DNA from: an uncultured Planctomycetota bacterium
GTDB taxonomy: Bacteria > Planctomycetota > Phycisphaerae > UBA1845 > UTPLA1
DNA length: 64,000 nt
NCBI GenBank assembly: GCA_900696465.1
Contig: CAADGE010000035.1
Span: forward strand, 186,001-250,000
Reading direction: 5' to 3'
Part shown: piece by piece, positions 5,334-45,214 of the stretch
How positions within the stretch are numbered: the stretch's first letter is position 1
Layout: each line of letters opens with the position of its first letter
Program-made: the position numbers and the translations under genes
The notes under the pieces: generated by a model
Seen by the model: only the letters and a program-made list of their open reading frames with translations
Told to the model about the DNA's origin: nothing
Databases searched by the model: none

Positions 5334-5684
5334 TCAGGCGTTCTGCGGCGGCCTCTCCCCGGGAGCCCACTCAATCGACCGCAGCCACCATCGCTTCCGC
5401 GGATTCTCGCCGACCTTGACGTGCCGGACGGCGTAGAGAGTCATGACCTCACCGGTATCGACACGCACGCGCCAGTAGTGCTTGCGATAGTAGGTCTCGC
5501 CGCGGCGATGATGCTCGCGCTCGCTTGCTTTCCATTCTTCGAGAACTTCCGCGATGTGATAATGCCGATCGCGCCATACAAAGCCCGTCGGCAGTCCCGG
5601 CATTCCGGCGGCCATCGCCGAGGCGTCGAACGTCCCCGCGTCTGGCACGATGGCTTCAGAGATGAACTGGCCTGCTTGATTCAC
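5334..5684 (-). CDS. DUF6504-family protein
   Basis: A 116-residue protein starting VNQAGQFISEAIVPDAG and containing MPGLPTGFVWRDRHYHIAEV, then a basic, aromatic-rich second half ending in RWWLRSIEW. This matches the small cytoplasmic DUF6504 family as I remember it: an N-terminal FISE.I.P element followed by FVWR.R.Y.V..VL. Function is unknown. The longest frame runs far upstream inside the neighbouring gene, but a GGAGG nine bases before a GTG at 5684 marks the likely start, only 31 bases after the stop of the dockerin-type gene. It may be cotranscribed with that gene. Confidence 0.6.
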   Translation of the reverse strand: MNQAGQFISEAIVPDAGTFDASAMAAGMPGLPTGFVWRDRHYHIAEVLEEWKASEREHHRRGETYYRKHYWRVRVDTGEVMTLYAVRHVKVGENPRKRWWLRSIEWAPGERPPQNA

Positions 5685-5715
5685 GGCCGGACGCCTCCGC
5701 GTCGTGCGGGAGACA

Positions 5716-7728
5716 CTACATCGCATCCACGAAGCCCTGTACGTCGAGGCCGTCGAGTTTGCCGTCATGATTGGTGTCGGCCTGGCACGTATAGTCGTCG
5801 GCCAGCATCGCCTCGACAAACAGCGGCACATCATCCAGATCGACAAGCCCGCTGCAATCCAGGTCTCCAACGAGAATCCCCGGGCATGCAGGGTATTCAC
5901 ATCCGTCCGGGATACCGTTGTTGTTGCAGTCAATCTCTCCAGCGCATGTATCGATCAGCCCGTTGCCGTTGCAGTCCAGCGACGGATTGGACGCGATGTC
6001 GCAACTGTCCGGCACCTGGTTGCCGTTGCAGTCGGAATCGGCGCCTCCGTTGATGTCGCACGAATCCGGGATGCCGTTGACGTTGCAGTCGGCCTCGCAG
6101 CCCGATGTGCAGAAAAAGGGCCCGCCGGGCGCGGGGCTGCCGACGGATATCTCGCATTCGTCGGGGATGCCATTTCCGTTGCAGTCGTTGCTGGTATTCG
6201 CGGCGATGTCACACTCGTCCGGCACGCCGTTGGCGTTGCAGTCCTCACTGAAGCCCGAGGAGATATCGCAGGCGTCCGGCACGCCGTTGGCGTTGCAATC
6301 CGGATCACAATCGGCCACACAGAAATACGGCCCGCCGGGCGCAGGCCCGCCCGCTTCGATCTCGCACACATCCAGGCGGCCGTTGGCGTTGCAATCCAAC
6401 TGCGCATCATTCGCAATGTCGCAGGCGTCCGGAATGCCGTTGCCGTCGCAATCGAGATCGCATTCGTCGAGATTTCCGTTGCCGTCGCAATCCAGCGACG
6501 GATCCGCCTGTATCTCAAGATGGTCAGGAATGCTGTTACCGTTGCAGTCCGGCGGATCGGGCAGTGGCCCCCACATCGTCGCGATCACGCTGGCCGGAGC
6601 ACCTGGCCGGAAGAGGCCAATCTCGATCTGTGCATTCGCAACCGGCGGCGAATTGGCCACGAATCGGAAGTTGTAGAGCGTCGAGAATCGCAGGGCGTTG
6701 GCCTGCGGGTTGACTGCATGGGGCGTCGTCTGCCAGCGCAGCCCGCCGGCGATTCGAGAAGCCGGCCAGTCGGTGCCATCGATCAACTCGCCGCTGTGAT
6801 AATTAACGTCGTGAAAGCCGGTCACGGGCACGGCCGCGTGGTCGCTGATGGCGAAGGTCAGCATGCCGACGGAACGGTGTGAGTTGAGATTGAACAGCGC
6901 GTATTCATACTGCCAGAAATAGTTGCCCAGGTCTGTCACCTTGACGCCAAGAATCAGTCGTCCGTCGCCGGGAATGTCCACGTTCGTCAGCGTGACCGAC
7001 GGATCAGAATCCTGCCATGCGACGATCGCCGGCTTGGTCCGCTCGGTGATGCCGGTGAGCGTGAGCGCGTACACGCCGGGCGATGGTTCATTCACCAGCA
7101 CGCGCCGGTAAGAGGCGTTGTTCAGCGCGTTACCCGCCGCGGCATCGTCCGCCGCGATGTAATGCCCCTCAACAAAATAGAGTGCTCCGGCGTTCAGTGC
7201 CGGATTGACGTCATCATTTTGAACCTGCAACCGAAAGCCGATCGTTGGGATCATGGGATAAAATGTGAACGGATATGGAAATGCACCGGTCGCGGCGTTC
7301 ACCTCGGAGCGTGGCCCGAGCACGAACTGGTTGCCGTTCAGCCCGGAGTTGTAGGGATCGTTGCACCCGACGCCCAGAAGCTGGCTGCTGCCGGGGTCCA
7401 CACAGGTCCCGCACAGCCCGCTCTCGTTGAGCGACGCGAAGCCGTGCTTGAGCCAGGCCATGCCGATCTGCTCGAAGCGACCGTCCTTCAAGCGATACAT
7501 GTTCTGGGCAATCACCGGATGCTGATTGGTCGAGCCGACCCAGAGCAGCGGCGCGGTGCCGACATTGCAGGAGTTGGTGCCGACCGAGTAGGCCGTGATG
7601 CCGCCGACGGTCCCCCATCTTGTCGTGCCGAACAGATCGCCGACGATCACGTCCGGCCCCGCTCCGCTCGTCGCGGTAACGCCGACGACGGTGAACCACA
7701 AAGTGGCAATCAATACGATGCGTCGCAT
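5716..7728 (-). CDS. Secreted dockerin-type protein, paralogue 1 of 3
   Basis: A 670-residue protein with a signal peptide (MRRIVLIATLWFTVVGVTAT, cleavage near SGA). Residues about 25-390 form a domain shared with the proteins at 23986-25368 and 57445-59202; landmarks are WGTVGGITAYSVGTNSCNVG, QNMYRLKDGRFEQIGMAWLK, DDAAAGNALNNASYRR, YEYALFNLNSHRS, FHDVNYHSGE and ALRFSTLYNFRF. Next come eleven DCNGNGxPDxCDI calcium-loop repeats, and the chain ends in a dockerin-like pair of EF-hand loops (GDLDCSGLVDLDDV and ADTNHDGKLDGLDV). Many cysteines suggest disulphides. I do not recognise the N-terminal domain from a named family. It is probably cell-surface or extracellular; the dockerin-like tail may bind a partner or anchor, which is inference. 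Confidence 0.75.
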   Translation of the reverse strand: MRRIVLIATLWFTVVGVTATSGAGPDVIVGDLFGTTRWGTVGGITAYSVGTNSCNVGTAPLLWVGSTNQHPVIAQNMYRLKDGRFEQIGMAWLKHGFASLNESGLCGTCVDPGSSQLLGVGCNDPYNSGLNGNQFVLGPRSEVNAATGAFPYPFTFYPMIPTIGFRLQVQNDDVNPALNAGALYFVEGHYIAADDAAAGNALNNASYRRVLVNEPSPGVYALTLTGITERTKPAIVAWQDSDPSVTLTNVDIPGDGRLILGVKVTDLGNYFWQYEYALFNLNSHRSVGMLTFAISDHAAVPVTGFHDVNYHSGELIDGTDWPASRIAGGLRWQTTPHAVNPQANALRFSTLYNFRFVANSPPVANAQIEIGLFRPGAPASVIATMWGPLPDPPDCNGNSIPDHLEIQADPSLDCDGNGNLDECDLDCDGNGIPDACDIANDAQLDCNANGRLDVCEIEAGGPAPGGPYFCVADCDPDCNANGVPDACDISSGFSEDCNANGVPDECDIAANTSNDCNGNGIPDECEISVGSPAPGGPFFCTSGCEADCNVNGIPDSCDINGGADSDCNGNQVPDSCDIASNPSLDCNGNGLIDTCAGEIDCNNNGIPDGCEYPACPGILVGDLDCSGLVDLDDVPLFVEAMLADDYTCQADTNHDGKLDGLDVQGFVDAM
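5893..6551 (-). repeat. Eleven tandem DCNGNGxPDxCDI calcium-loop repeats
   Basis: Inside the gene above, the minus strand encodes eleven units from DCNGNSIPDHLEI through DCDGNGIPDACDI, DCNANGVPDECDI and DCNGNGIPDECEI to DCNNNGIPDGCEY. Most units are about 13 residues plus a 5-10 residue spacer, and two spacers carry a longer PAPGGPxFC insert. The pattern of Asp/Asn at positions 1, 3 and 5 resembles thrombospondin type 3 or EF-hand loops, so calcium-dependent folding is likely. At the DNA level the plus strand shows near-repeats such as ccgttggcgttgcagtc, which could promote slippage or recombination. Confidence 0.9.
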
Positions 7729-29496: not shown

Positions 29497-30834
29497 CTAA
29501 TTTCCGCCGCGAAGACCAAGCCCCAGAGAAGCAAGCTGGCTCTTGATTTCCTTCAACGAAGTCTGGCCGAAATTTCGCGATTCGAGAAGCTCCTGTTCCG
29601 AACGCGCCGCCAGCTCGCCAACGGTATTGATCCCCAATCGTTGCAGGCACTTTCGAGATCGGACGGACAACTCCAGCGCCGTCACCGGCCGCGAAAGAAG
29701 TTCGGGGTTCGCATCCGGAAACATGGCTGCGGCCTCGATCGGCTCGCCGGACGAAACGACCTCCCTGCGATCGGCATTCTGGCCCAGCGAGAGCCCTTTC
29801 TGGGCAAGCATGGCCTTGATCTCTCGAAGACTCGTCTCGCCGAAGTTCTTGTAGGACAACAGCTCCGCCTCGGTGATCCGCAGGAGGTCGCCCAGGGTGT
29901 TGATGTTCATCTTCTTAAGGCAGTTCCGGCTGCGGACGGAAAGCTCGAAGTCCGTCACCGGGATATCCATGACCGCGTCACGCTTCTCCTGGGCCTTGAG
30001 CTGCACCTCATCAATGTACATGTTCTGGGCCGCCAGGACATCCTTCAGATACAGCCGCGCCCGGGCGTTGTTCGGATTGACCGCCAGCACGCGCCGCAGG
30101 CAGGCCGTGGCCTTCTCATACTCCGCACGATCCTCAAGGATCACGGCAAGATTCATCAACGCATGACTGTGTACAAATGGCAGCTCCGTGCAGCGGTAGT
30201 AAAGCTCTCGCGCCCGCTCATCGCTGCCGTGCAGGTCAAGCAGATACGCAAGGTGGAACATCGCCAGCGCATGATCGCAGTCAATGGCCAGCGCGGCCTC
30301 GTAGGCCTCGATCGCAGCATCCAACTGGCCCTGCTCATGAAGCACGCGTCCGCGGGCATATTGCCAGATGGCAGAGGAAGCTCCCGCGGCTCGGTGGGCA
30401 TCGAGCAGGCGCGATGCGCCGTCGATATCACCGGAAAGCAAGAGACACTCGGCGCGCTGGCAGTCGCAATCCAGCCGATCCCACCCTTTGCCGACTGCCG
30501 CCTCGAAGCGCGTCGCAGCATCGCTGTAGCGCCGCAGATCTCGAAGGGCGATGCCGATGTGAAACTCACGCAGGGCTGACGGCCCGGCCTTTTCCAGCCA
30601 GTCGAGTGCCTGCGATGTGTCACCGATCAACAAGTAACCGAGGCCGAGCTTGATCGCCTGCGCGGCACCCTGGGATCCGCCCGACTCCGCAGATCGCTGG
30701 AGTCTGGAAAGCAGCTCGACGAATCGGTTCAGCGACTCGCTCGTCGCGAACGCAGCTTCCTTGACCTGTTTGTAGGATTCCACATCGAATTCGGGTTTGT
30801 CGAGAATCGCTGCGAGATCTGCCGTCATTTCCAT
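29497..30834 (-). CDS. TPR protein with two RNA-polymerase alpha C-terminal domains
   Basis: A 445-residue protein. Residues about 45-285 are TPR helices (LGYLLIGDTSQALDWLEKAG, AALAIDCDHALAMFHLAYLL, ACLRRVLAVNPNNARARLYL). Two copies of the alpha C-terminal domain follow. Copy 1 begins VTDFELSVRSRNCLKKMNIN and copy 2 begins VTALELSVRSRKCLQRLGIN; both continue with a GDLL or GELA helix and NFGETSLREIK or NFGQTSLKEIK. Compared with E. coli RpoA, the DNA-contact Arg265 is kept in both, Asn268 is kept in copy 1 but is Lys in copy 2, and Lys298 is Thr in both. The protein may bind UP-element-like DNA or polymerase partners through the CTDs and other proteins through the TPRs. It is divergent from dnaA. 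Confidence 0.85.
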   Translation of the reverse strand: MEMTADLAAILDKPEFDVESYKQVKEAAFATSESLNRFVELLSRLQRSAESGGSQGAAQAIKLGLGYLLIGDTSQALDWLEKAGPSALREFHIGIALRDLRRYSDAATRFEAAVGKGWDRLDCDCQRAECLLLSGDIDGASRLLDAHRAAGASSAIWQYARGRVLHEQGQLDAAIEAYEAALAIDCDHALAMFHLAYLLDLHGSDERARELYYRCTELPFVHSHALMNLAVILEDRAEYEKATACLRRVLAVNPNNARARLYLKDVLAAQNMYIDEVQLKAQEKRDAVMDIPVTDFELSVRSRNCLKKMNINTLGDLLRITEAELLSYKNFGETSLREIKAMLAQKGLSLGQNADRREVVSSGEPIEAAAMFPDANPELLSRPVTALELSVRSRKCLQRLGINTVGELAARSEQELLESRNFGQTSLKEIKSQLASLGLGLRGGN

Positions 30835-31331: not shown

Positions 31332-32672
31332 ATGAACGAGCTGAGTGAGAGTGTCTGGGCGGACATTCTGGGCCACGTGCGCACCCATCATCCTGCTATC
31401 TCGCGCGGATGGTTTTCACAGCTGCGGTCGGGCTCTCTGAACAGCGGCGTTTTGACGGTCCTGGCTGCCAATGCGGCCCAACTGAGCTACCTCGTTGAAC
31501 ACTGCATGAGGCCGTTCGTCGAGGCCGCGCAGGCCGCGACGGGTCGGCTGGTCTCGGTCCGATTCGAAGCCGCCAATGGCGAAACCCTCGAATCTGCCGG
31601 CTATGCCCCGCGAAACGTTGCCGGGTCTGAGGAATTCGCCGGCCCCGGGCTGCGGCTCAACAGCGACTACACCTTTGAAAACTTCGTCGTCGGCCCTTGC
31701 AACCGCATGGCTCACGCAAGTTGCACGGCTGTCAGCCAGTCACCGGGAACCACCTACAACCCGCTTTTCATCCACGGCAGCGCAGGCCTCGGCAAGACCC
31801 ACATGCTCCAGGCAATCTGCCACCGTGTGCTCGATCATTCCCCGGGCACGCGCATTGTCTACATGTCCTGCGAGACATTCGTTAATCAGTTCATTGAAGC
31901 GGTCGAGCGTGGCCTGTTGAACGGCTTTCGTTACCGCTACCGACACGCCGACGTCCTGATGGTGGACGACGTGCAGTTCCTCTCCGGCCGCGATGGCACG
32001 CAGGAAGAATTCTTCCACACGTTCAACACCCTCTACCAGATGCACAAGCAGATCGTGCTCACTGCCGATTGCTCTCCCTCTGAGATTCCACAGCTTGAGG
32101 AGCGTCTGGTAAGCCGCTTCAAGTGGGGCCTTGTTTCTCGAATTGATCCGCCCTGCCTGGAGACGCGACTGGCCATCATTCAGAAAAAAATGCGAATGCG
32201 CGGTATCGAGCTTCCGGAGGAAGTGGCGATGTACGTCGCCTCCACCATCACCTCGAACGCGCGCGAGCTGGAAGGTGCTCTCAACCGCCTGCACAGTGCC
32301 GCAGCCCTCGAAGAAAAGCCGATCGATCTGGTTCTCTCCAGAATGGTCCTGGGCGGGGAGATTCAGGGCGCCCGCCGGCCGATCCGCGTTCAGGACATCA
32401 TGACCGTGGTCACGGAACGGTTTGATGTGAAGCTCTCCGACCTCCAGGGCCGCCGCCGCAGTCGCTCAATCGCCCTGCCACGCCAGATCTGCATGTACCT
32501 CGCCCGGCAATGCACAAGTCACAGTCTCGAGGAAATCGGCGGGTTCTTCGGCGGCCGGGACCACACCACCGTGCTGCATGCCAACAAACTCATCACTCGG
32601 ATGCGCGAGGAAGATTCCAACTTCCGTCGTCGAATCGAAGAAATGGAACAAGCCCTCCAGCGAGCAGGTTGA
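31332..32672 (+). CDS. dnaA: Chromosomal replication initiator DnaA
   Basis: A 446-residue AAA+ ATPase that binds DnaA boxes and opens the origin. Domain I is at about residues 5-90, a short variable linker follows, and the ATPase starts with NSDYTFENFVVG. Walker A is GSAGLGKTHM, Walker B VLMVDDVQFL, and sensor residues lie in SRFKWGLVSRIDPP. The C-terminal DNA-binding domain has the DnaA signature in IALPRQICMYLARQCTSHSL and GGRDHTTVLHA. Next on the same strand are dnaN, a DUF721 gene and gyrB. The ribosome-binding site is weak (GAG eight bases before the ATG). Confidence 0.97.
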   Translation: MNELSESVWADILGHVRTHHPAISRGWFSQLRSGSLNSGVLTVLAANAAQLSYLVEHCMRPFVEAAQAATGRLVSVRFEAANGETLESAGYAPRNVAGSEEFAGPGLRLNSDYTFENFVVGPCNRMAHASCTAVSQSPGTTYNPLFIHGSAGLGKTHMLQAICHRVLDHSPGTRIVYMSCETFVNQFIEAVERGLLNGFRYRYRHADVLMVDDVQFLSGRDGTQEEFFHTFNTLYQMHKQIVLTADCSPSEIPQLEERLVSRFKWGLVSRIDPPCLETRLAIIQKKMRMRGIELPEEVAMYVASTITSNARELEGALNRLHSAAALEEKPIDLVLSRMVLGGEIQGARRPIRVQDIMTVVTERFDVKLSDLQGRRRSRSIALPRQICMYLARQCTSHSLEEIGGFFGGRDHTTVLHANKLITRMREEDSNFRRRIEEMEQALQRAG

Positions 32673-32992
32673 CCAGCGACTGTTAGTTGCCGTGAATAAC
32701 CTGCGTCGAGGAACGAGGTTGGCTCGTGGAGATTTTCGACCTGCCCGACAAACTGTCAGTTCCGTCCACGCAAAGCGACCGGCTCACAGGGGATTCGACA
32801 GGTTGTCCAGATAGACGCCGCCGGCAGTCTGCGGTATCATCAATGCCCGTCAAAACCTGCGTTATCCGGCCTCGGATGCGCTCGGGATTGACAGGGCATA
32901 CGAAGGACTGTGATTGTCTATTACTTGGATAGAAGAGTAGACGTAACAGTCATCAGGTGTGATGTCTTTTCTGTACTTGTTGAGGCGTTGCT
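32673..32992. other. Gap between dnaA and dnaN
   Basis: This 320-base stretch contains no gene I can support. It has DnaA-box-like variants (ttgtccaga near 32806 and ttatccggc near 32862) that match the consensus only in part, and a TTGACA at 32888-32893 that could be a -35 box for dnaN, although the -10 position is poor. Confidence 0.4.
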
Positions 32993-34090
32993 ATGAAGTT
33001 CATTTGTGATCGGCTCGCGCTTCTGGAAGGTCTCTCTGCGGCCTCCGCGGTGGCGACGGCGCGCTCGACCAAGCCAATTCTCCAGTGTGTTCGGATCACG
33101 GGCACCAAGAACCTGGTCACACTCACGGCGTATGACCAGGAAGTCGGCCTGCGGTATCACATCCGCCAGGTCGACGTCACCAAGCCCGGCGAGACCCTCG
33201 TCAGTTGTGAGCGCCTGCTCGCTATCGTCCGCGAATCCGCCGACGAGACCATGTCTTTCGAGTCGGATGAGGACACCCTTCACATCCGCGGGGCCGACAG
33301 CCACTTTACAGTGATCGGTCAGAGCGTGCGCGAGTTTCCTCCTGTTCCTGATCTCGAAGGAGACGCGGACTTTTCGGTGAAAGTCGCCCCCTTGCGGGAT
33401 GCAGTCGAGCATACTCTCTTCGCCGCAGCGCGCGAGAATACGCGCTATGCGATCAACGGCGTCCTCTGGCAAAAGAAGGGTAAAACGCTGCAGCTTGTTG
33501 CTACCGACGGCCGCCGGCTTGCGATGTCAGCGGCTTCGCTCGAAAAATCCGTCGGCGATGACCTCCAGGCCATCGTGCCGGCCAAGGCCCTGGCCCTGCT
33601 CGGGCGGCTGCATTTCGGCGGGGACGAAGTAATGAATGTAAAGATCTCTGCCAATCAGGTCCACATGCGGACCGAACAGGCCGAGCTCAGCAGCGTCCTC
33701 GTCGAGGGACATTTTCCAAAGTACGAAGACGTGATCCCACGAGACAACGATAAGAAGATAACGCTGAAGACAGACGAGTTCCTCAGCGCGGTTCGGCGCT
33801 CCGCCGTGCTGTCCACGGTTGATTCCAAGGGTATTCGCATCGCCATCGGCCCCGAAGGCATGGTGATCTCCGGTAAGGCCCATGAACAGGGCGAAGCCGT
33901 GGTTAAGCTCTCTGGTATCGAATACACCGGCAGCCCGATCACGATCGGGTTCAATCCCGAGTTCCTGCAGGATGCCCTCAAGGTCTGCGGCGAGAACCTG
34001 ACGCTGGAACTCAAGGAACCGGCGCGGCCCGGCCTGATCCGCAGCGGCCCGGTCTATCAGTATGTGGTGATGCCGGTAAGTCTGACCTGA
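32993..34090 (+). CDS. dnaN: DNA polymerase III sliding clamp (beta subunit)
   Basis: A 365-residue clamp with the three repeated domains of the family, beginning MKFICDRLALLEGLSAASAV. Recognisable parts are VSCERLLAIVRESADE, the domain 2 start with ENTRYAINGVLW and VATDGRRLA, and domain 3 with GFNPEFLQDALKV and the C-terminal YQYVVMPVSLT, close to the usual clamp ending M-P-M-R-L that helps form the partner-binding pocket. The ring holds the polymerase and other partners on DNA. It lies downstream of dnaA. Confidence 0.96.
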   Translation: MKFICDRLALLEGLSAASAVATARSTKPILQCVRITGTKNLVTLTAYDQEVGLRYHIRQVDVTKPGETLVSCERLLAIVRESADETMSFESDEDTLHIRGADSHFTVIGQSVREFPPVPDLEGDADFSVKVAPLRDAVEHTLFAAARENTRYAINGVLWQKKGKTLQLVATDGRRLAMSAASLEKSVGDDLQAIVPAKALALLGRLHFGGDEVMNVKISANQVHMRTEQAELSSVLVEGHFPKYEDVIPRDNDKKITLKTDEFLSAVRRSAVLSTVDSKGIRIAIGPEGMVISGKAHEQGEAVVKLSGIEYTGSPITIGFNPEFLQDALKVCGENLTLELKEPARPGLIRSGPVYQYVVMPVSLT

Positions 34091-34139
34091 CCGCAGCGAA
34101 CGCAGGCCCGTCCGCAAGCGGCTTTTCCGATCGGCTGGG

Positions 34140-37231
<3,092 letters not shown>

Positions 37232-37235
37232 CGCA

Positions 37236-37697
37236 TCACGACTGGGATCCCATCAGCCCGCGAATCTTCTCCGCGCGAAATTCAAATATCGTTCGAATGT
37301 CCCGCTGAACGACCATCGCATGTGCAATACGGCCGATCAGCCCGAGCGGCAACGCATAACGCACCATGTCTTCCATGACTGTCTCTCCGCCGTCCGCTTC
37401 AAAGCGATGCGTATGATGCCACAGGCGATAGGGTCCGCGCACCTGCGTGTCGACGAATTGCCGTCCGGGCTGCCAGTCGATGATCTCGGTCAGCCACGAG
37501 ATCGGCACACCGTACCATCGTATGGTGTATGCGATCTGTGTGCCGATACGCATCTCGATCGGGGTCGGCGTGCGAATCTCAAAATGCAGCCAGGCCGGCG
37601 TGAGCAGATCGAGATTCGAGGCATCCGAGAAGAAGTCAAACACCTCTCCGATCGGCCGCGGGATTCGCTGTGTCTGTAACAGCGTATAGACCTTCAT
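37236..37697 (-). CDS. SRPBCC-family protein, last gene of the UV-repair operon
   Basis: A 153-residue protein starting MKVYTLLQTQRIPRPIGEVF, then FFSDASNLDLLTPAWLHFEI, YGVPISWLTEIIDWQPGRQF and MEDMVRYALPLG. This matches the SRPBCC/polyketide-cyclase-like helix-grip fold, which forms a ligand pocket. Its ATG overlaps the uvsE stop by four bases, so it should be made from the same message. Stand-alone SRPBCC proteins of this type often occur with NAD-binding SDRs, as here. The ligand is unknown. Confidence 0.8.
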   Translation of the reverse strand: MKVYTLLQTQRIPRPIGEVFDFFSDASNLDLLTPAWLHFEIRTPTPIEMRIGTQIAYTIRWYGVPISWLTEIIDWQPGRQFVDTQVRGPYRLWHHTHRFEADGGETVMEDMVRYALPLGLIGRIAHAMVVQRDIRTIFEFRAEKIRGLMGSQS

Positions 37698-38644
37698 GCC
37701 AACCCCCCCGCTGTCGTGCGTGTCGCTCGGGGACCCGCGGCGACAGAGGGCCTCGCCGCTACAGCCCCCATCAGGCGTAGCACGGCGGCCTCCTTTGCCC
37801 TGGCTTCTACTTCGACAGTCACCTGCAGCACTTTCCAACATTCCGGAAAATCCGAAACTCGGACAAAGTCGGCGTGTACGCGCGGGTTGGCCGCACGCCA
37901 CCCGCCCTGAGGGCTGGACACATGAAAAAGCGGTTCACGATTCCACGTCGCGATGCTCCGCCTTGTAACCTCATCCGTCGACAGGCCGTCCGGGAGGCAG
38001 CGATGGTGATGCACGTCATAGACGAACGGCACCCCCTCGGACCCGCACAACGGAAGTAAATCAGTGGGCGTAAAGACTCGGTCATCGTTTTCCAGGGCGA
38101 TTCGGCTTCGGGCGCCAGCGGAAAGACTGCTCAGATTTCGCCGCAACCGATCGAGTGCCGATATTTTGTCACCATATGCTCCTCCTCCGTGCAGAGTTAT
38201 CACGTCAGCGCCGACCCAGTCTGCGACCATCGCCTGATATTCAAGCTCTGCGATCGAGTTTCTGATCACCTGCTCCTTCGGGCTGCTGAGTACCACGAAC
38301 TGGTCGGGATGAAAGGTCAGCCGTACGCCGGCCCGTGCCGCCGTACGTCCGCAGGCAACGAAGGCCGCAACGATCGACTCCGCATCCGGCAAGTCGCTGG
38401 CGGCGTAGCCCGCTTCGGGGTGCGTCAGAAGCGGCAGAATCTGACTGTTGATTCGAAAACAACCGATGCCCTGCGACGCGCAATAACGAATGGCCTCGCG
38501 AAGCGCCGCTGCATTTGCGAGGGCCAGCTCCGCTAGGCGCTCGAGTCGCGTCGCCCGTGGCAGCCGTAGCATCGCGGCGGCCGTCGTGGTACGAAATCGA
38601 ATTACCACGTCGCGAAAGCAGCAGCACACCCCAAAGCGAACCAT
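37694..38644 (-). CDS. uvsE: UV-damage endonuclease
   Basis: A 316-residue TIM-barrel nuclease of the UVDE/UvsE family, which nicks DNA 5' to UV photoproducts to start excision repair. Family features: MVRFGVCCCF start, YCASQGIGCFRINSQILPLL, RLTFHPDQFVVLSS with its metal-binding His, VITLHGGGAYGDK, IALENDD and FVYDVHHHRCLP. The Glu and His residues expected to bind metals are in place. It begins one base before the end of the upstream SDR gene and overlaps the SRPBCC gene by four bases. The last ~30 residues are a basic, Ala-rich tail without obvious function. Confidence 0.93.
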   Translation of the reverse strand: MVRFGVCCCFRDVVIRFRTTTAAAMLRLPRATRLERLAELALANAAALREAIRYCASQGIGCFRINSQILPLLTHPEAGYAASDLPDAESIVAAFVACGRTAARAGVRLTFHPDQFVVLSSPKEQVIRNSIAELEYQAMVADWVGADVITLHGGGAYGDKISALDRLRRNLSSLSAGARSRIALENDDRVFTPTDLLPLCGSEGVPFVYDVHHHRCLPDGLSTDEVTRRSIATWNREPLFHVSSPQGGWRAANPRVHADFVRVSDFPECWKVLQVTVEVEARAKEAAVLRLMGAVAARPSVAAGPRATRTTAGGLA

Positions 38645-40197
38645 CAGGGTCGCCCCCCCACGAGCGTGCAGGACAGATCGGGCGGCGCATCCAGCGGAGA
38701 TGCCGTCGCTCCTGCCGTGCCGGCAATGCCGCGCAAGAGACCGTTAAACACGATGCCATGCAGCGGAGCCACCGCATACCAGTAAGCCACACCGGCCAGA
38801 CCGTGCGGCTTAAAGCGAGCCGTCTGAGTCAGCACGCTTCCATTCCCTTCCGGGCGGATCTCGAACTCCAGCGTCGCTTCACCTGGCAGCCACATCTCCG
38901 CGCGCAATTCCAGCCGTCGCCCCTCCTCGATCGCCGTGACGCGCCAGAAGTCCAGCGCCTCGCCGAAGGACAGCTTCTCGGGATGCCGACGTCCGCGGCG
39001 AAGTCCTGGCCCACCGACGAATCGGTCGAGGATGCCGCGCAGCCGCCAGAGACCGTCGCCCGTGTAGTAGCCGTTCCGCCCGCCGATGCGACATACCGCA
39101 GCGAAGAGCGCTGCCTGGCTTGCGGAAACGCGCATGCAGCGCCGATCGACGAAGGTGCGGCCACCCGCCCAGTCCGGATCACCGGGAATCGGCCCTGCGT
39201 CCGACCACGTCGTCTCAACTTCGCTCGTTGTAAACCTGCCGAGCGCTGCGTCGATTGCCTCGCGCACGCCGAGACATTCGTGCGGCATGAGTCGGGCTGC
39301 ATCCTCATTGCGGCAGACAACCCGGTTTCGAAGGCCCTCCGCCAGCGGCCGCGCGATACGATGGCTGATCGGCGTAACGAGGTGAATCCACAATGAACTG
39401 AGCCGTGGCGTCAGGACCGGCACTGGAATCACGATCCGCTTTTTCTGTTTCATGGCCTCGGCCATGACGTCCATCAATTCACGGTAGGTCAGGACATCCG
39501 GCCCGCCGATGTCCAGCGTCCGACCGATGCTCTCGGGCTGCTCAAGACAAACAACCAGGTAATGCAGCACATCGCGCACGGCAATCGGCTGACACTGCGT
39601 ACTCACCCACCGCGGCGTCACCATGACCGGCAGCCGCTCCACAAGATAGCGAAGGATTTCAAAGGAAGCCGAGCCCGACCCGATGATCATCGCGGCCCGG
39701 AAGACTGTAACAGGCACCCTGGTCGATGCCAGCGCCGCTTCCACTTCTCTGCGGGAGGTCAAATGCTCGCTCAATCCTTCACCGGTTTCTCCGAGCCCGC
39801 CGAGGTAGATGATGCGTCGAATTCCGGCCTGATGGGCGGCCTTTGCAAAGCGAGTGGCGAGCAGGCGATCATGTGCCCGATAGTTCGCCCCCGCCGACAT
39901 CATGGAGTGGATCAGATAATAAGCGGCATCGCAGCCGCGCATTGCCTGTCGCAACTTTTCAGGGTCGCCCAGATCCGCTTCGATGATCTCGGCGGCGGGG
40001 CCGTTGGCCCACTGCCGCGCGGCTAGCTTTCGCGCCGAGCGCACCAGACACCGAACACGGTATCCGGCGCGGATCAACCGCGGCACCAGGCGCCCGCCGA
40101 TGTAGCCGGTCGCTCCCGTGACCAGCACACAAGGCCGATCATCCTCCCCGGATCCTTCTGCCGCCACACGTTCGTCCATCTCGATCTCCGACGTCAT
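38644..40197 (-). CDS. NAD(P)-binding SDR with C-terminal DUF2867 (SRPBCC-like) domain
   Basis: A 517-residue two-part protein. The N-terminal ~300 residues are an atypical short-chain dehydrogenase with the nucleotide-binding VLVTGATGYIGGRLVPRLI and EADLGDPEKLRQAMRGCDAA, IIYLGGLGE, and a PVTVFRAAMIIG stretch. The C-terminal ~150 residues (GDGLWRLRGILDRFVGGPGL, FWRVTAIEEGRRLELRAEMW, LPGEATLEFEI) match DUF2867. Proteins of this build occur in light-responsive gene sets of other bacteria next to photolyase, as I recall. Substrate unknown. Its stop codon overlaps the uvsE start, and the beta-propeller gene ends six bases upstream. Confidence 0.85.
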   Translation of the reverse strand: MTSEIEMDERVAAEGSGEDDRPCVLVTGATGYIGGRLVPRLIRAGYRVRCLVRSARKLAARQWANGPAAEIIEADLGDPEKLRQAMRGCDAAYYLIHSMMSAGANYRAHDRLLATRFAKAAHQAGIRRIIYLGGLGETGEGLSEHLTSRREVEAALASTRVPVTVFRAAMIIGSGSASFEILRYLVERLPVMVTPRWVSTQCQPIAVRDVLHYLVVCLEQPESIGRTLDIGGPDVLTYRELMDVMAEAMKQKKRIVIPVPVLTPRLSSLWIHLVTPISHRIARPLAEGLRNRVVCRNEDAARLMPHECLGVREAIDAALGRFTTSEVETTWSDAGPIPGDPDWAGGRTFVDRRCMRVSASQAALFAAVCRIGGRNGYYTGDGLWRLRGILDRFVGGPGLRRGRRHPEKLSFGEALDFWRVTAIEEGRRLELRAEMWLPGEATLEFEIRPEGNGSVLTQTARFKPHGLAGVAYWYAVAPLHGIVFNGLLRGIAGTAGATASPLDAPPDLSCTLVGGRP

Positions 40198-40203
40198 TCA
40201 CGG

Positions 40204-41532
40204 CTATGGCGATTTGCCATCGACCGCTGCCGGCCGATTCTCCCAGCGAAACGCAGTCAGGCCCTGAAGATCGCGCACGAACAGCTCATCACCGCAGACG
40301 GCTAGGTGTGCCCATGACTCGGCTTCAGCAACTTCGCGGCGATCGAGGAGACGAAACTTCTTCGGGTTCGCTGCCATCAACAGCAATTCCCCGTTTTGAT
40401 TCAGCGCCAGGATTCGATTGCCGTTGGAAACCATGCTCCAGTACTCTCCAAGCGGCTTGCTGCGCCACAGTTCCTTGCCTTCCTTCAGATCCACACAGCA
40501 GAGCCGACCGTTGCCAAGATGGAGATACGCATGGTGGCCGATGACCACCGGAGAGGACATGTACCCCTGTCCGGGCGTCGTCCATTCCTCGGAAACGCCA
40601 TAGCCGGAGCCATTGCTTGTCACGCGATAGAAGAAGGTCTTGTTCTTGTGGCTGCTGGTGAAGACGCCGTTCTCGAAGACGGTCGGCGTGAGGATGTTCA
40701 TGCCGCGATAGGACGGCACCACCTGCGACCACAACACCTCACCATTCTCTGGGCGAACGCCGGCCAGCTTCTGGCGCATCTGTACGACCAGTTGCAGCTC
40801 TCCGTGCAGGGTCGCAAGCACCGGAGACGAAAACGCGCTGTCCATCCCGCCGCCGTCCTTGAGCGTCTGCCAGACTTCTTTTCCGCTGTGTTTGTCGAGT
40901 TTGACAAACGCGCCGCCCGCCTGAACGTACACGTAATCGCCGATCACCAGGGGCGAGCAGACAAAGCCAAAGCTCGGCACCGGCGTTTTGCGTGTCGCGG
41001 GGAAATCCACACGCCACCGCTCCGCGCCGGTTTCCGCGTCGAGACAGATGAGCACATCGCGCATCCCGGCCACAAAGAGCGATTGGCCGTCGTAGGCAGG
41101 CGTGGAGCGGATCCAGTCGCCGTTTCGGCGAGCGAAGAAGGGCACGCTCATCGCGCCCTTCCAGCTTGTGCGCCAGATTTCCGAGCCCGTCCTGCGGTCC
41201 AGCGCGCGGACAACCTCATCCCGCTTGTCGTGTGTTTCTGTGACGAAGACCCGATCTCCCCCCACGATCGGGCCGCTGTAGCTCGGACCAAGTTCAACCC
41301 GCCAGCTGGTTGACAGGCCGGAGAGGTCCTTCGGCCAAGTTGCAGGATCACCGATCTTCGAATCGCGCGTGGGCCCCCTCCACTGCGGCCAATCGGATTC
41401 CCCTGCCTGACCGAGGGCCGCTTGCGCAAAGAGCAGCAGAAGTGCCGCCTGCCAGATCAGTGACCATGCCGACGGCGCGACAGCGAAAGCGTGAACACTT
41501 TCGCAAGGCAGACGCGAGGTTTTCGTGTTCAT
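40204..41532 (-). CDS. Exported PQQ-type beta-propeller (BamB-like) protein
   Basis: A 442-residue protein with a long signal region (hydrophobic LIWQAALLLLFAQAALG, cleavage near GQA). It begins the mature part with DWPQWRGPTRDSK, the usual start of planctomycete outer-membrane-protein-assembly-like propellers. Repeated blades have the PQQ-like pattern: ALDRRTGSEIWRTSW, CLDAETGAERWRVDF, KLDKHSGKEVWQTLK, GVRPENGEVLWSQVV, CVDLKEGKELWRSKP. There is no sign of PQQ-dehydrogenase catalytic residues, so a structural or binding role is likely. It overlaps the lipocalin gene by four bases. Confidence 0.8.
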   Translation of the reverse strand: MNTKTSRLPCESVHAFAVAPSAWSLIWQAALLLLFAQAALGQAGESDWPQWRGPTRDSKIGDPATWPKDLSGLSTSWRVELGPSYSGPIVGGDRVFVTETHDKRDEVVRALDRRTGSEIWRTSWKGAMSVPFFARRNGDWIRSTPAYDGQSLFVAGMRDVLICLDAETGAERWRVDFPATRKTPVPSFGFVCSPLVIGDYVYVQAGGAFVKLDKHSGKEVWQTLKDGGGMDSAFSSPVLATLHGELQLVVQMRQKLAGVRPENGEVLWSQVVPSYRGMNILTPTVFENGVFTSSHKNKTFFYRVTSNGSGYGVSEEWTTPGQGYMSSPVVIGHHAYLHLGNGRLCCVDLKEGKELWRSKPLGEYWSMVSNGNRILALNQNGELLLMAANPKKFRLLDRREVAEAESWAHLAVCGDELFVRDLQGLTAFRWENRPAAVDGKSP

Positions 41533-42098
41533 GGGGAAACTTCCGGAAATTGGGGCATGAGCTCCAGCCGCGCGGGGTCGTATCCCTTGGCCGGCAGGCG
41601 CGAGAGAATGCCGTTATAGGTTTCCTCATCCAGGGTTGGTGTGCGACTCAGGATCCACAGAAATGATCGGGTCGGATCGCCGACCACGGCGTACCGGTAT
41701 TCGTCATCCAGATCAATGATCCAGTACGGCGCGCCGAACGGATAGAAGAAATACACGGTCAGCTTTGCATTGGTTTCCTTATCAGCCACGGTCGCAAAGC
41801 CGGTGATGGTTCGCTGAATGGACTGGCCGTCTTCGGAGCGGCAGACGTTATGCACGGTCACGGTGCCGTCATCGCGCAGGGTATATTCGGCTGTCACCGC
41901 GAAGCACCCCGCTTCAAAAGAATTGGGATACTTTGCAATCTCGTACCAGGTTCCCATGTAGCGCTCGATGTCGACCCTCTCGACGACCTCCAGGGGCTCC
42001 CCGCCGCCGAACATGAAACAGCCCGACGAGAGACTCGCCAGGAGGGCCATCGTCAACAGCGTCGAAAGCGACAGCTTCTTTGCACACAATTTCGTCAT
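41529..42098 (-). CDS. Blc-type lipocalin lipoprotein, first gene of the operon
   Basis: A 189-residue lipoprotein (lipobox SSGC at about residue 27). The lipocalin GxW motif is in RYMGTWYEIAKYPNSFEAGC, and the rest follows bacterial Blc: AEYTLRDDGTVTVHNVC, GFATVADKETNAKLTVYFFY, GAPYWIIDLDDEYRYAVVGD, FLWILSRTPTLDEETYNGIL. Blc binds fatty acids or lysophospholipids and is made under membrane stress. The ATG has GGAG nine bases upstream. A 10-base palindrome gctgtacagc (42155-42164) lies about 60 bases upstream. Four further genes follow with overlaps of 4 and 1 bases and one gap of 6, so this is the head of a five-gene operon. Confidence 0.92.
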   Translation of the reverse strand: MTKLCAKKLSLSTLLTMALLASLSSGCFMFGGGEPLEVVERVDIERYMGTWYEIAKYPNSFEAGCFAVTAEYTLRDDGTVTVHNVCRSEDGQSIQRTITGFATVADKETNAKLTVYFFYPFGAPYWIIDLDDEYRYAVVGDPTRSFLWILSRTPTLDEETYNGILSRLPAKGYDPARLELMPQFPEVSP

Positions 42099-42525: not shown

Positions 42526-43404
42526 TCACTGCGGCAGGATGACTGCGTCGATCACATGGATCACGCCGTTCTCCGCGGCGACGTCGGGCTTGATCACCCG
42601 CGCATCGTCCACTTTGACGCCGCTGGATGCGTCGATCTTCACATTCTGCCCCTGAACCGTTTTGGCCTCCTTCAGCTTGACCACATCCTTGGCCATGACC
42701 TTGCCCGGTACCACGTGATACGTCAGCACCGAAGCGAGCTTCTTCTTGTCCTTGAGAAGGTTTTCAAGAGCGCCTTTGGGCAGCGCGGCGAAGGCGTCAT
42801 CCGTCGGAGCAAAAACAGTGAACGGCCCCTCGCTGCGCAGGGTGTCCGTCAGCCCTGCGGCCTCAATAGCTGCGAGCAGGGTCTTGAAGGAGCCGGCATT
42901 GCGAGCCGTCTCAATGATGTCGTTCTTGGGAAGAAGGACCGTATCAATGACGTGGATGACGCCGTTGGTGCAGCCGATGTCCGTCTTCGTAACATTGGCG
43001 CCGCCAATGCGCACGCCCCTGGAAGTGTCAATCGACAGCGACTGTCCCAGCAGCGTTCTGGCTGATGTCAGCTTTACCACCTCGCCGGATTTCACGTTTC
43101 CTGAAACGACATGCAGCATCAGCACGGCGCGGAGCTGCTCTTTGTTCTTCAGCAGGTTGTCGAGTGCCCCCTTGGGCAGCTTGGCAAACGCCTCGTCCGT
43201 CGGAGCGAAGACGGTAAAGGGCCCCGGCCCCTTCAGCGCGTCAACGAGGTCCGCGGCCTTCAAGGCCGTGGCCAGTGTGTTGAATGACCCGGCCGAGACC
43301 GCCGTGTCGACGATGTCCTTGCCGGCCTCTGCGCGGGCAGCGCCGGCTTGATTTCCGAAGACAAGCGCCACTGCCATCGCTTCTACGATCATCCATTTCA
43401 ACAT
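42526..43404 (-). CDS. Secreted protein with two fasciclin (FAS1) domains
   Basis: About 292 residues with a signal peptide (cleavage near ARA) and two complete FAS1 domains. Each has the H1 motif, [20 protein letters not shown] in the first and [20 protein letters not shown] in the second, and the H2-like end [12 protein letters not shown] or [15 protein letters not shown]1 proteins mediate adhesion or bind surface ligands. The two domains are very alike, suggesting a recent internal duplication. An ATG at 43404 sits eight bases after AGGAG and was preferred over the ATG at 43410, which is too close to it. It lies between folE and the DUF378 gene on the same strand. Confidence 0.9.
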
Positions 43405-43540
43405 GAGCATTACTCCTCGATCTTGCTTTCATCATCTCTTTTCGCGGGCGGCCGAGGAAAACACGCGTTTCCTGAATTCGGCCGTGCGACGAAACTCAGA
43501 TGCAACGATCAGTTCGGGTTAACTTTCGATTCAGCTCTTT

Positions 43541-44209
43541 CTATCTCCCTGTGCCCAGGAGAGACATCGCCTCGGCACGCGATGCGGCGCCTGATGCAAA
43601 GACTCCCCGGGCTGCGGAGGTCACCATGACGCTGTTGGGCTTGGAGGCGCCGCGCACCTTCATGCACATGTGCTCCGCCTCGATTACCACCAGCGCGCCG
43701 CGAGCATCCAGATGAATCATCAGGGCGTCAGCAATCTGGGCGGTCATTCGTTCCTGAACCTGCGGACGTCGTGCGTATGCATCGACCGTGCGCGCGAGCT
43801 TGGAAAGTCCGACGACCCGGCCATTCGGCAGGTAGGCCACGTGGGCGCGGCCCAGGAACGGCAGCAGGTGGTGTTCACACATCGAAGCGAAGTCGATGTC
43901 GCGAAGAACCACGATCTCGTCGTAGGACTCTTCGAATGTTCTCTGGAGGTGGACGGCGGGATCGGTGCGCGTGCCGGCGAACATCTCCGCATACATCCGG
44001 GCCACACGGGCCGGCGTGTCGGCCAGGCCATCGCGATCAGGGTCCTGCCCGACCGCAAACAAAATCTCTCGGACGGCCGCCTCGATGCGCTCCGTATCGA
44101 CCACGCCATGGCTGTGGCCGGCTCGAGGCGCCCGATATTCTGCGCCTGCGATTTCGTAATCTTCTTCGCGGCACGCCTTCGCCGCACTATCCAGACAGGT
44201 TCGAATCAT
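43541..44209 (-). CDS. folE: GTP cyclohydrolase I
   Basis: A 222-residue enzyme that turns GTP into dihydroneopterin triphosphate, the first step of folate and pterin synthesis. Zinc ligands are in [20 protein letters not shown] and in [27 protein letters not shown] and [20 protein letters not shown] are family motifs. The frame continues to an ATG at 44269, but that codon lies upstream of the -10 box seen at 44256-44261, and an AGGTG precedes the ATG at 44209; the resulting length equals that of E. coli FolE as I recall. It is divergent from the CarH-like regulator and probably controlled by it, possibly to supply pterin cofactors. Confidence 0.94.
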
Positions 44210-44255
44210 CAAATCACCTAAAGACGAATAAACAACCAATTCATTCAATACGTTC

Positions 44256-44316
44256 ATATTATTTGACATATCTTTGAATAGTCAAGCTTGACTTGAACGA
44301 AAATTCGTTATATTTG
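44256..44316. promoter_or_regulatory. Divergent folE / regulator promoters sharing one palindrome
   Basis: The perfect palindrome AGTCAAGCTTGACT (44280-44293) supplies TTGACT as the -35 box in both directions. On the plus strand TTGACT (44288-44293) is followed after 17 bases by TATTTG (44311-44316). On the minus strand TTGACT (44285-44280) is followed after 18 bases by TAATAT (44261-44256). The plus-strand spacer contains a second inverted repeat, AACGAA-AA-TTCGTT (44296-44309). The region is strongly AT-rich for this genome. A MerR-type dimer binding between -35 and -10 would fit, so autoregulation together with folE control is likely. Confidence 0.65.
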
Positions 44317-44341: not shown

Positions 44342-45214
44342 TTGAGTCCGATAATTTCGCCAAGAGAGCTTGCGGAGGCCATAGGTGTCAGCGAGTCATC
44401 GCTCAAGAGGTGGGCGGACGAGGGGCTGATTCAGGTCTCAAAGACGGCGGGTGGGCACCGACGGATCGCCATCGGCGAGGCCATTCGATTCATCCGGGCG
44501 ACCCGTGCGCCGCTCCTGCGCCCGGAGGCCATCGGCATGGACGACCTGGCTCGGGCGGGAAACGTAGCCCTGCTTTGCGATGACCCGGCGGAGCGCCTGT
44601 TTGCACTTCTTCGGGAAGGAAAAGAGGTGGAGGCATGGGGGCTGATAGCGTCCCTCTATCTCTCAGGGCGATCTGTTGCGGAAATCGGGGATGGCTCGAT
44701 TCGCAGCGCGATGGAGCGCATCGGCGAGCTCTGGCGACATGAAGAGGCGGGGATTTTTGTCGAGCATCGTGCGACGGCGATCTGCTGCCAGGCCGTCGAG
44801 CGGCTTCGATTCCTGCTCGACCCTCCCGGCGCTTCGTTCACCGCCGTCGTGGGCGGTGCCGCGGGCGACCCCTACACGCTGGCGCCGCTGCTGGTGACGG
44901 CGACACTGGCGTCTGAAGGCGCAGCGACAACTAATCTTGGACCGGACACGCCGACCGAGGCATTGCTGGCATCCATTGAAGAACACGATCCACACATCGT
45001 CTGCCTCTGCGTCAACTCCATTCGCGACGCCAACGAGATCGAGCGCGGAATCGTGCAGCTGGCCGCGCGACAGGCGGCTCGAGGGGCCGAGCTGGCCGTT
45101 GGCGGTCGCGCCGCCGGCCAGTTGCAGCTCCCGAATCGCCCCAACGTGCATATGACCCCATCACTTGCAGAGCTGGCCGCGCTGGTCCGGAATCGCAAGG
45201 GCATCGATTCGTAA
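44342..45214 (+). CDS. CarH/LitR-like MerR regulator with B12-binding-type domain, His ligand missing
   Basis: A 290-residue regulator. An N-terminal MerR helix-turn-helix (SPRELAEAIGVSESSLKRWA, about residues 6-70) is followed by the four-helix cap and a Rossmann-like cobalamin domain, the CarH/LitR architecture. The cap motif Wx9EH is present with W131 and EH141-142, at the same numbers as in Thermus CarH as I recall. The ExHxxG motif that gives the lower cobalt ligand in CarH aligns with GDPYTLA, so His is replaced by Tyr178 and Gly by Ala. Light sensing by adenosylcobalamin is therefore uncertain; it may bind another cobalamin form, another ligand, or none. The TTG at 44342 follows GGAGG closely and matches the family start. 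Confidence 0.85.
   Translation: MSPIISPRELAEAIGVSESSLKRWADEGLIQVSKTAGGHRRIAIGEAIRFIRATRAPLLRPEAIGMDDLARAGNVALLCDDPAERLFALLREGKEVEAWGLIASLYLSGRSVAEIGDGSIRSAMERIGELWRHEEAGIFVEHRATAICCQAVERLRFLLDPPGASFTAVVGGAAGDPYTLAPLLVTATLASEGAATTNLGPDTPTEALLASIEEHDPHIVCLCVNSIRDANEIERGIVQLAARQAARGAELAVGGRAAGQLQLPNRPNVHMTPSLAELAALVRNRKGIDS

What the first reader, a model, noticed from the sequence alone, without database searches (positions are those of the whole stretch)
44342..45214. CarH-type regulator has lost the cobalt-ligating histidine
The cap motif Wx9EH is intact (W131, E141, H142), so the fold that covers the upper face of adenosylcobalamin is kept. But the ExHxxG motif aligns with GDPYTLA: Tyr178 replaces His and Ala replaces Gly. 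Ligation of cobalt by His is what locks the light-exposed state in CarH. This protein may bind cobalamin differently, sense another small molecule, or act without ligand.
Basis: partly seen in the sequence, partly recalled or inferred. Interest (0 to 1): 0.75.

Follow-up and report, generated by a model that had tools for sequence, protein, structure and literature searches.

The report
CarH-like regulator with tyrosine for histidine
A planctomycete gene switch that looks like the vitamin-B12 light sensor CarH, but carries a tyrosine where CarH holds the cobalt, belongs to a widespread, old and apparently undescribed branch of such switches that sits beside DNA-repair and stress genes and has its own conserved DNA recognition repeat.

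Summary
In detail: the 290-aa protein (TTG start 44342) has W131, E141, H142 and, where CarH has the cobalt-ligating His, Tyr178 (GDPYTLA). "Has lost" misleads: in the 79 best loci of one genome scan (about seven phyla by title) residue 178 is Tyr in 65 and His in 9, and E141-H142 is kept in 79 of 79. Tyr is the family state. A second lower-face change goes with it: Trp221 in 114 of 117 non-redundant Tyr rows and in none of 13 canonical His types; by strand position it should fill the pocket for the cobalamin tail (the window itself has Cys there). Upper-pocket residues stay nearly invariant. New here: a 9-bp direct-repeat motif (TCGTTCAAA) upstream of 69 of 79 such genes and 25 of 30 of a sister subfamily, in the window too. 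Common neighbours: folE, fasciclin, ECF sigma factors, DUF2867-SDR, photolyase. Best reading: an autoregulating repressor of photo-oxidative stress and repair genes whose switch is no longer CarH's His-on AdoCbl. The signal is unknown: altered ligand in the upper pocket, non-canonical cobalamin, or a partner protein. By the published two-motif definition it is not a CarH. New variant of a known kind.

The parts
44342..45214 (+). Tyr-type CarH-like regulator gene, 290 aa, TTG start
44354..44476 (+). HTH, residues 5-45, nearest CtMerR and BldC among solved structures
   Evidence: 8jbs 2e-6, 6ama 1.3e-4 (one search prints 'putative DNA-binding protein'; that 6ama is BldC is recalled)
44585..44812 (+). 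four-helix cap (B12-binding_2), residues 82-157
44732..44770 (+). W131-x9-E141-H142-R143: CarH cap motif plus family-specific Arg
44831..45208 (+). Rossmann (B12-binding-like) half, residues 164-289
44864..44884 (+). G175-D-P-Y178-T-L-A181 in place of GDxHxxG; Tyr178 at 44873-44875
45002..45016 (+). C221-L-C223-V-N225: place of the family's W-x-S-x-S; inferred cobalamin-tail pocket strand
44242..44256 (+). operator-like repeat CATTCAATACGTTCA (two 9-bp units), between the genes or overlapping the 5' end of folE
44294..44299 (-). second operator-like unit TGAACG (CGTTCA on the minus strand), 48 bp before the regulator start
43541..44269 (-). folE, GTP cyclohydrolase I, divergent neighbour (start may be the ATG at 44209, which has AGGTGA before it; inference)
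42526..43410 (-). fasciclin-domain protein
41529..42098 (-). lipocalin-like protein; not a conserved neighbour (2 of 79 loci)
38644..40197 (-). NAD(P)-binding SDR with DUF2867
37694..38644 (-). UvdE UV-damage endonuclease; not a conserved neighbour (0 of 79 loci)

Best explanation
This is a member of a conserved Tyr-type branch of MerR/B12-domain regulators. It binds 9-bp direct repeats (TCGTTCAAA units) in the promoter region shared with folE, probably as a head-to-tail array, and represses itself and the divergent photo-oxidative stress/DNA-repair genes until a light- or photo-oxidation-linked signal releases it. The B12 domain no longer holds AdoCbl in CarH's base-off/His-on way: Tyr replaces the lower ligand and, in nearly all relatives, Trp fills the inferred tail pocket. 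The upper half of the pocket (W131, E141, H142 and the new R143, with the G-x3-P loop that packs between subunits in CtMerR) is still under strong selection, so I think the switch still works by cap-on-Rossmann closure and oligomer change, driven by something other than His-ligated AdoCbl. Shown: sequence, conservation, upstream motif, gene neighbourhood, model fold. Inferred: DNA binding, repression, light link, absence of His-on AdoCbl. Unknown: the signal.
For: Residue 178 in 79 loci: Y65 H9 S3 F1 T1; E141 and H142 79/79, W131 77/79, D176 78/79. Trp221: 131 of 135 Tyr rows (114 of 117 without repeats) versus 0 of 13 canonical His types. Arg143 in 81 of 85 EH rows; Leu in both CtMerR and TtCarH. 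H177A stops AdoCbl binding (PMC4557120, passages). Motif: CGTTCA within 300 bp upstream in 69 of 79 (78 loci plus window) against 14.1 +/- 3.2 of 75 random windows of the same loci; within 150 bp 54 of 79 against 5.8 in local shuffles; 9-bp same-strand spacing in 22 pairs, next commonest 6; sister subfamily 25 of 30 (2.9 expected), ATCGTTCA 17 of 30 (0.2 expected). Upstream gene divergent in 56 of 69 loci; upstream genes, window included: folE 13 of 69, ECF sigma 10, fasciclin 8, photolyase 4. Photolyase in 40 of 45 regulator genomes against 40 of 155 others (hand tally, test). The own sister paralogue is followed 16 bp later by photolyase and has an exact double repeat about 200 bp upstream. 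Fold.
Against: The window itself has Cys, not Trp, at 221, so its tail pocket may be open. One canonical His type (L221) has Leu, not a small residue, there. Own genome has corrinoid adenosyltransferase and eight B12-binding matches, two of them the two regulators; 43 of 45 regulator genomes have the adenosyltransferase against 116 of 155 others, which fits a continued AdoCbl role. His stands at 178 in 9 of 79 loci, so the site tolerates a cobalt ligand. Rossmann cobalamin domains without His that still bind cobalamin are known (PMC13331322, passages). UvdE was found near 0 and lipocalin near 2 of 79 relatives. 10 of 79 upstreams lack the exact motif. That 8 other MerR/B12-domain genes of the phylum lack it (200 bp) is a weak contrast: about one would be expected by chance. 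Nothing here shows binding, repression or light response.
Confidence: 0.55

Rival explanations
1. It is still an AdoCbl light sensor, binding the cofactor base-off/His-off or base-on, with Tyr178 below the cobalt. Light would break the Co-C bond and open the cap as in CtMerR, which also lacks the His132 of TtCarH.
For: Adenosyl-contacting W131 and E141, H142 and the G-x3-P loop nearly invariant; adenosyltransferase in 43 of 45 regulator genomes; His-less Rossmann domains that bind cobalamin exist; His reappears at 178 in several lineages; window has Cys at 221.
Against: H177A abolishes AdoCbl binding in TtCarH; a CBD with Arg at this place bound only hydroxocobalamin (PMC11796333); Trp221 in nearly all relatives should block the tail pocket (inference from strand position).
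Confidence: 0.22
2. It is a B12-free repressor released by a separate light- or stress-sensing partner, as BluR by BluF, class II LitR by a short LOV protein, or CarA by CarS.
For: Known relatives work so (PMC9758184, PMC3509220, PMC8156234; passages). BLUF proteins in 9 of 45 regulator genomes against 10 of 155, one of them next to a sister-type regulator (G032). Photolyase/cryptochrome-family proteins in 40 of 45.
Against: Own genome has no BLUF hit and no exact NCRFLQ LOV signature; that exact pattern occurs in 0 of 45 regulator genomes and 22 of 155 others; looser LOV motifs were not sought. Degenerate homologues lose the cap motif, this family does not.
Confidence: 0.25
3. The domain has turned to a tail-less tetrapyrrole (heme or a porphyrin), with Tyr178 as metal ligand, as the SCHIC domain of AppA turned to heme.
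For: Two changes that fit one swap: oxygen ligand for His and a filled tail pocket; AppA SCHIC structures match the model at Z 16.2 to 16.5; SCHIC binds heme on the same fold (PMC9144470, passages).
Against: SCHIC lost the aromatic cap that this family keeps and uses a His two residues away for iron; E141, which touches the adenosyl group in CarH, would have no reason to stay; no direct evidence of heme binding; the window lacks Trp221.
Confidence: 0.15

Closest known systems
CtMerR of Chloracidobacterium thermophilum (PDB 8jbs/8jbt; PMC11796333)
   Same: similar short HTH plus cap plus Rossmann; W, E, H of the cap; Arg after the Trp; Ala at the end of the motif; best sequence and structure match among solved proteins
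   Different: has the lower-ligand His204, Leu after EH and Cys at the 221 place; proven AdoCbl photoreceptor
Thermus thermophilus CarH
   Same: domain order and fold, Wx9EH, G-x3-P; neighbourhood with UvsE, photolyase and SDR genes
   Different: 23% identity; His132 and His177 ligands; classical MerR HTH; 11-bp operator repeat (PMC8156234) against a 9-bp upstream repeat here
Class II LitR (PplR, PmlR of Pseudomonas; PMC9758184)
   Same: light-inducible control of folE, photolyase and other genes without B12 in the published systems (passages)
   Different: only the four-helix bundle is recognisable there; Pseudomonas sequences could not be compared; a Salinivibrio MerR protein between a DUF523/DUF1722 gene and phrB has lost EH and the Rossmann motif
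BluR / MlrA of E. coli
   Same: MerR-like HTH; BluR is a repressor with light input through a separate protein
   Different: different C-terminal Pfam families; the significant part of the BLASTP alignment to BluR is limited to the HTH
AppA SCHIC domain
   Same: same fold without the cobalamin motif
   Different: heme bound, cap aromatics lost, loop inserted (PMC9144470)

Membership tests
CarH (AdoCbl photoreceptor-repressors) | Wx9EH motif in the cap | tested here: met
   W131, E141, H142; definition in PMC8156234 (passages)
CarH (AdoCbl photoreceptor-repressors) | E/DxHx2Gx41SxV/Tx22-27GG B12-binding motif | tested here: not met
   Tyr for His, Ala for Gly, Cys for Ser, Asn for V/T; D176 and GG kept
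CarH (AdoCbl photoreceptor-repressors) | AdoCbl binding and light-driven loss of oligomer | not testable with these tools
   no assay
CarH (AdoCbl photoreceptor-repressors) | 11-bp direct-repeat operator nAnnTnnACAn (TtCarH) | tested here: inconclusive
   the conserved upstream repeat has a 9-bp period and CGTTCA core, but it is not shown to be this protein's operator, and CarH operators are described as plastic (PMC9304148, passages)
SignatureFinder light-responsive CBD | GxxW, EH, GxxH, GxxxP together | tested here: not met
   GELW, EH and GPDTP present; GxxH is GDPY
Class II LitR | only the four-helix B12-binding_2 domain recognisable, LOV partner | tested here: inconclusive
   Rossmann half still recognisable (29.6 bits); no exact LOV signature in own genome; Pseudomonas sequences not compared
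BluR/MlrA | Pfam MlrA_helical and MlrA_C domains | tested here: not met
   not listed for P0001 (E up to 0.001), present in BluR and MlrA
BldC-type DNA binding | BldC-like HTH and direct-repeat sites | tested here: inconclusive
   HTH matches 6ama at 1.3e-4 and upstream sites are direct repeats; binding mode not shown; BldC consensus AATTXXXX(C) differs
SCHIC | heme instead of cobalamin | not testable with these tools
   fold match Z 16.2 to 16.5; ligand unknown

The most novel reading that the evidence does not exclude
A cross-phylum family of CarH-like regulators has rebuilt the B12 pocket from below for a different chromophore: Tyr in place of the cobalt-ligating His and Trp in the place of the cobalamin tail would suit a tail-less tetrapyrrole (heme or a photosensitising porphyrin), sensed between the old cap and the Rossmann half, giving light or singlet-oxygen control of pterin/folate synthesis and photorepair through a shared 9-bp repeat operator.
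Probability: 0.15. Interest if true: 0.85.

Novelty: new variant of a known kind. Interest (0 to 1): 0.6.

Why it matters
CarH is the model B12 photoreceptor and an optogenetic tool, and the published database screen for new ones filters on the very His that this family lacks (PMC11796333), so a large set of regulators in a similar genomic setting is passed over. If the Tyr type still senses light, it is a new photochemistry or chromophore on a known scaffold; if not, it shows how a light switch was rewired while its upper pocket was kept. The conserved upstream repeat makes both testable with one gel shift and one spectrum.

Tried and rejected
Recent loss or assembly error: rejected, Tyr is the family state. 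Another His as lower ligand: none conserved in the Rossmann half; the commonest, 215, is in 26 of 85 EH rows. His reversions as proof of a working cobalamin site: weak, because the 13 His rows inside the Tyr family (12 without repeats) keep Trp221. Pro177 goes with Tyr178 (64 of 79) and never with His (0 of 11, Fisher 1.9e-7), but only 2 independent pairs lie on supported branches, so it is not claimed as a tested covariation. The tree is a quick one; its root rests on two long branches (TtCarH, CtMerR) that its output warns about. Own LOV photoreceptor: exact NCRFLQ pattern absent. BLUF: absent in own genome. Class II LitR of Pseudomonas: sequences not reached; Salinivibrio, Eleftheria, Comamonas and Rhizobium plasmid homologues were fetched instead and the first three compared. 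Genome-wide regulon: CGTTCANNNCGTTCA with up to 1 mismatch, 49 places in the own genome against 17 for the reversed pattern; of the 48 other than the window's I inspected 13, picked by eye: 3 intergenic (the paralogue's, one before a Kelch/Ig-domain protein gene in L267, one beside a DsbD-like gene in L265) and 10 inside called genes, so many are probably chance. In the window only 44242 stands out (10 places at up to 2 mismatches, 6.2 expected).

Trp221 as tail-pocket filler is an inference from strand alternation with the Ser of the SxS motif; model coordinates could not be measured. Of the 13 canonical His types 12 have Ala, Gly, Val or Cys there and L221 has Leu; at least L231 and L232 show no MerR HTH in the aligned stretch. 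The 8-kb neighbour counts use raw six-frame ORFs; the cluster list of that call contained antisense shadows and was not used. The simple gene caller found the regulator as a gene in 70 of 79 loci; of 69 upstream genes one (L155) was left out of the Pfam tally. The scan kept the best 80 of 303 relatives, so the family statistics describe its nearer part; one locus (L128) was left out of the upstream count for lack of sequence. The genome search scores only the best first-look candidates per genome. The genome tallies were entered by hand from the printed lists, and related genomes are not independent.

Full report
What is there. Window 44342-45214 (+) codes for a 290-residue protein with a TTG start and a GGAGG ribosome site. 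It has a short HTH (best solved relatives CtMerR, 2e-6, and 6ama, 1.3e-4, the latter BldC by recall), a four-helix cap (Pfam B12-binding_2, 34 bits) and a Rossmann half (B12-binding, 29.6 bits, cut-off 32.1). AlphaFold2 with a 50-row alignment gives pLDDT 92.3; the nearest solved chains are CtMerR (8jbs, Z 21.4, 2.6 A over 216 residues), the photocobilins (Z about 21) and TtCarH (Z 17.6, 2.9 A over 199).

Is the His really replaced? Yes. CtMerR GDLHEIA, methionine synthase GDVHGIG and TtCarH GERHEIG align on GDPYTLA without gaps. In TtCarH the H177A change stops AdoCbl binding and tetramer formation (PMC4557120, passages).

It is a family, not a loss. Of 200 genomes (own included) 45 have a homologue at E 1e-10. 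The 50 rows from them (own gene included) divide by residue 142 into 20 with His (window type) and 30 with Arg (sister type); residue 178 is Tyr in 43 and His in 2 of the 50; the own genome has one of each type. One scan of genome contigs found 303 relatives and kept the best 80, 79 distinct loci, by record titles from Planctomycetota, Acidobacteriota, Myxococcales and other Deltaproteobacteria, Candidatus Binatia, Gemmatimonadetes, Omnitrophota and Sericytochromatia. In these 79 residue 178 is Y65 H9 S3 F1 T1; E141 79/79, H142 79/79, W131 77/79, D176 78/79. On a quick tree of 97 family rows plus TtCarH and CtMerR the H/not-H state changes at least 9 times, which fits one early His-to-Tyr change and about eight returns to His; the root is uncertain.

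A second lower-face change. In the family residue 221, two before the Ser of the SxS motif, is Trp: 131 of 135 Tyr rows (114 of 117 after removing repeats), against none of 13 canonical His types (TtCarH, CtMerR, Eleftheria, Comamonas and nine from the same phylum), of which 12 have Ala, Gly, Val or Cys and one Leu. Three cobalamin domains of the own genome with an intact DxHxxG motif have Gly there by inspection of the printed stretch (L098, L099, L101). Because 221, 223 and 225 face the same side of the strand, and the cobalamin tail lies between sheet and helices in known domains (PMC13331322, passages), Trp should fill the tail pocket; this is inference. The window is one of three distinct exceptions (Cys221; the others Leu and Phe). 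Arg143 replaces the Leu that follows EH in CtMerR and TtCarH (81 of 85 EH rows). By contrast the residues of the upper pocket and of the G-x3-P loop (G200 85 of 85, P204 84 of 85 EH rows) are nearly invariant, while degenerate homologues L220, L223 and L224 have lost W131, E141, H142 and P204. I read this as a rebuilt pocket that is still used, rather than a dead one; it is an argument from conservation only.

The upstream repeat. The 300 bp before 79 window-type genes (78 loci and the window; L108 and L109 are near-identical; short contigs give less) hold an exact CGTTCA in 69 cases, 41 with two or more; random 300-bp windows of the same loci give 14.1 +/- 3.2 of 75, at most 22 in 200 draws. 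Local shuffles, which keep base composition, give 5.8 where 54 of 79 were seen within 150 bp. Copies on one strand lie 9 bp apart in 22 pairs (next commonest 30 bp, 6); consensus about AAATCGTTCAAATCGTTCA. The sister subfamily, not used to find it, has CGTTCA in 25 of 30 upstreams (260 bp; 2.9 expected from shuffles) and ATCGTTCA in 17 of 30 (0.2 expected); 8 other MerR/B12-domain genes of the phylum (L216-L220, L222-L224; 200 bp) have none, where about one would be expected by chance. In the window the repeats are CATTCAATACGTTCA at 44242-44256 and TGAACG at 44294-44299. The first overlaps the longest folE frame; folE may start at the ATG at 44209, which has AGGTGA before it, but the relative L108 would encode a similar N-terminus over its repeat (read by eye), so this stays open. 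BldC binds direct repeats head to tail (PMC5859096, passages) and CarH binds 11-bp direct repeats (PMC8156234, passages), so a direct-repeat array is plausible.

The neighbourhood. The upstream neighbour is divergent in 56 of 69 loci. Pfam of 69 upstream genes (window plus 68; one left out): GTP cyclohydrolase I 13, ECF-type sigma factor 10, fasciclin 8, photolyase 4 and a photolyase-related protein 1, DUF2867 3. Within up to 8 kb of 79 loci, BLAST with the window's genes finds folE 14, fasciclin 18, DUF2867-SDR 19, SRPBCC 18, PQQ-propeller 5, but lipocalin 2 and UvdE 0. Photolyase (PF03441 over its cut-off) is in 40 of 45 regulator genomes against 40 of 155 others (genomes are related, so the p value is not to be taken at face). 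In the own genome the sister regulator is followed 16 bp later by a photolyase gene on the same strand, with an exact double repeat about 200 bp upstream, which is also 45 bp from the next divergent gene. TtCarH lies among UvsE, photolyase and SDR genes, and the Pseudomonas LitR regulons hold folE and phrB (PMC9758184, passages). All this points to a photo-oxidative stress and repair regulon; no expression data were available.

What senses? Own genome: no BLUF, no exact LOV signature, corrinoid adenosyltransferase present. Regulator genomes: exact LOV pattern 0 of 45 against 22 of 155; BLUF 9 of 45 against 10 of 155; adenosyltransferase 43 of 45 against 116 of 155. So the enzyme that makes AdoCbl is nearly always there, a LOV partner is unlikely, a BLUF partner possible in a few. 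The data do not decide between an altered ligand, unusual cobalamin binding and a partner.

Literature. The listings of searches of the open library showed no paper on a Tyr-type family, its DPY motif or this repeat; subscription papers are mostly not held. The review of His-less cobalamin domains seen in passages names Cys, Arg, Thr and Leu at or below the cobalt, and the word tyrosine does not occur in its text. PMC9304148, PMC3509220, PMC9144470 and PMC8828468 were also seen in passages only.

Verdict. Observation confirmed; "lost" should read "has Tyr, as most of its family does". Not a CarH by the published two-motif definition, but it very likely works like one in outline. New variant of a known kind.

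Noticed in passing
window 29497-30834 (-): Protein whose C-terminal half shows two similar repeats resembling the RNA polymerase alpha C-terminal domain after a tetratrico-like region (seen by eye in the translation, names recalled).
   Followed up: no
window 31332-37231 (+): dnaA, dnaN and gyrB like genes in a row, judged by eye from their translations; the window may hold the replication-origin region.
   Followed up: no
G032:C4:87644-88967: A short BLUF protein gene lies tail to tail with a sister-type (ERRA) regulator, an E. coli BluF/BluR-like pairing in a relative.
   Followed up: partly
upstream of 10 of 69 homologues: ECF-type sigma factor genes are the second commonest gene just upstream of Tyr-type regulators, perhaps a second output or a light-stress cascade.
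   Followed up: no
L225 (G343:C1:1701789-1703640): Two regulators in tandem, one of the sister type with DVY and one degenerate that has lost W131, E141-H142 and the Rossmann motif.
   Followed up: no
L211 (Eleftheria terrae plasmid) 5403-6879: A canonical His-type CarH-like gene divergent from a fasciclin gene, beside imuA and error-prone polymerase genes: the fasciclin link is seen with His and Tyr types.
   Followed up: partly
L267 (G000:C5 near 3655): Intergenic TGAATGACTTGAACG repeat before a large Kelch/Ig-domain protein gene, a possible further target in the own genome.
   Followed up: partly
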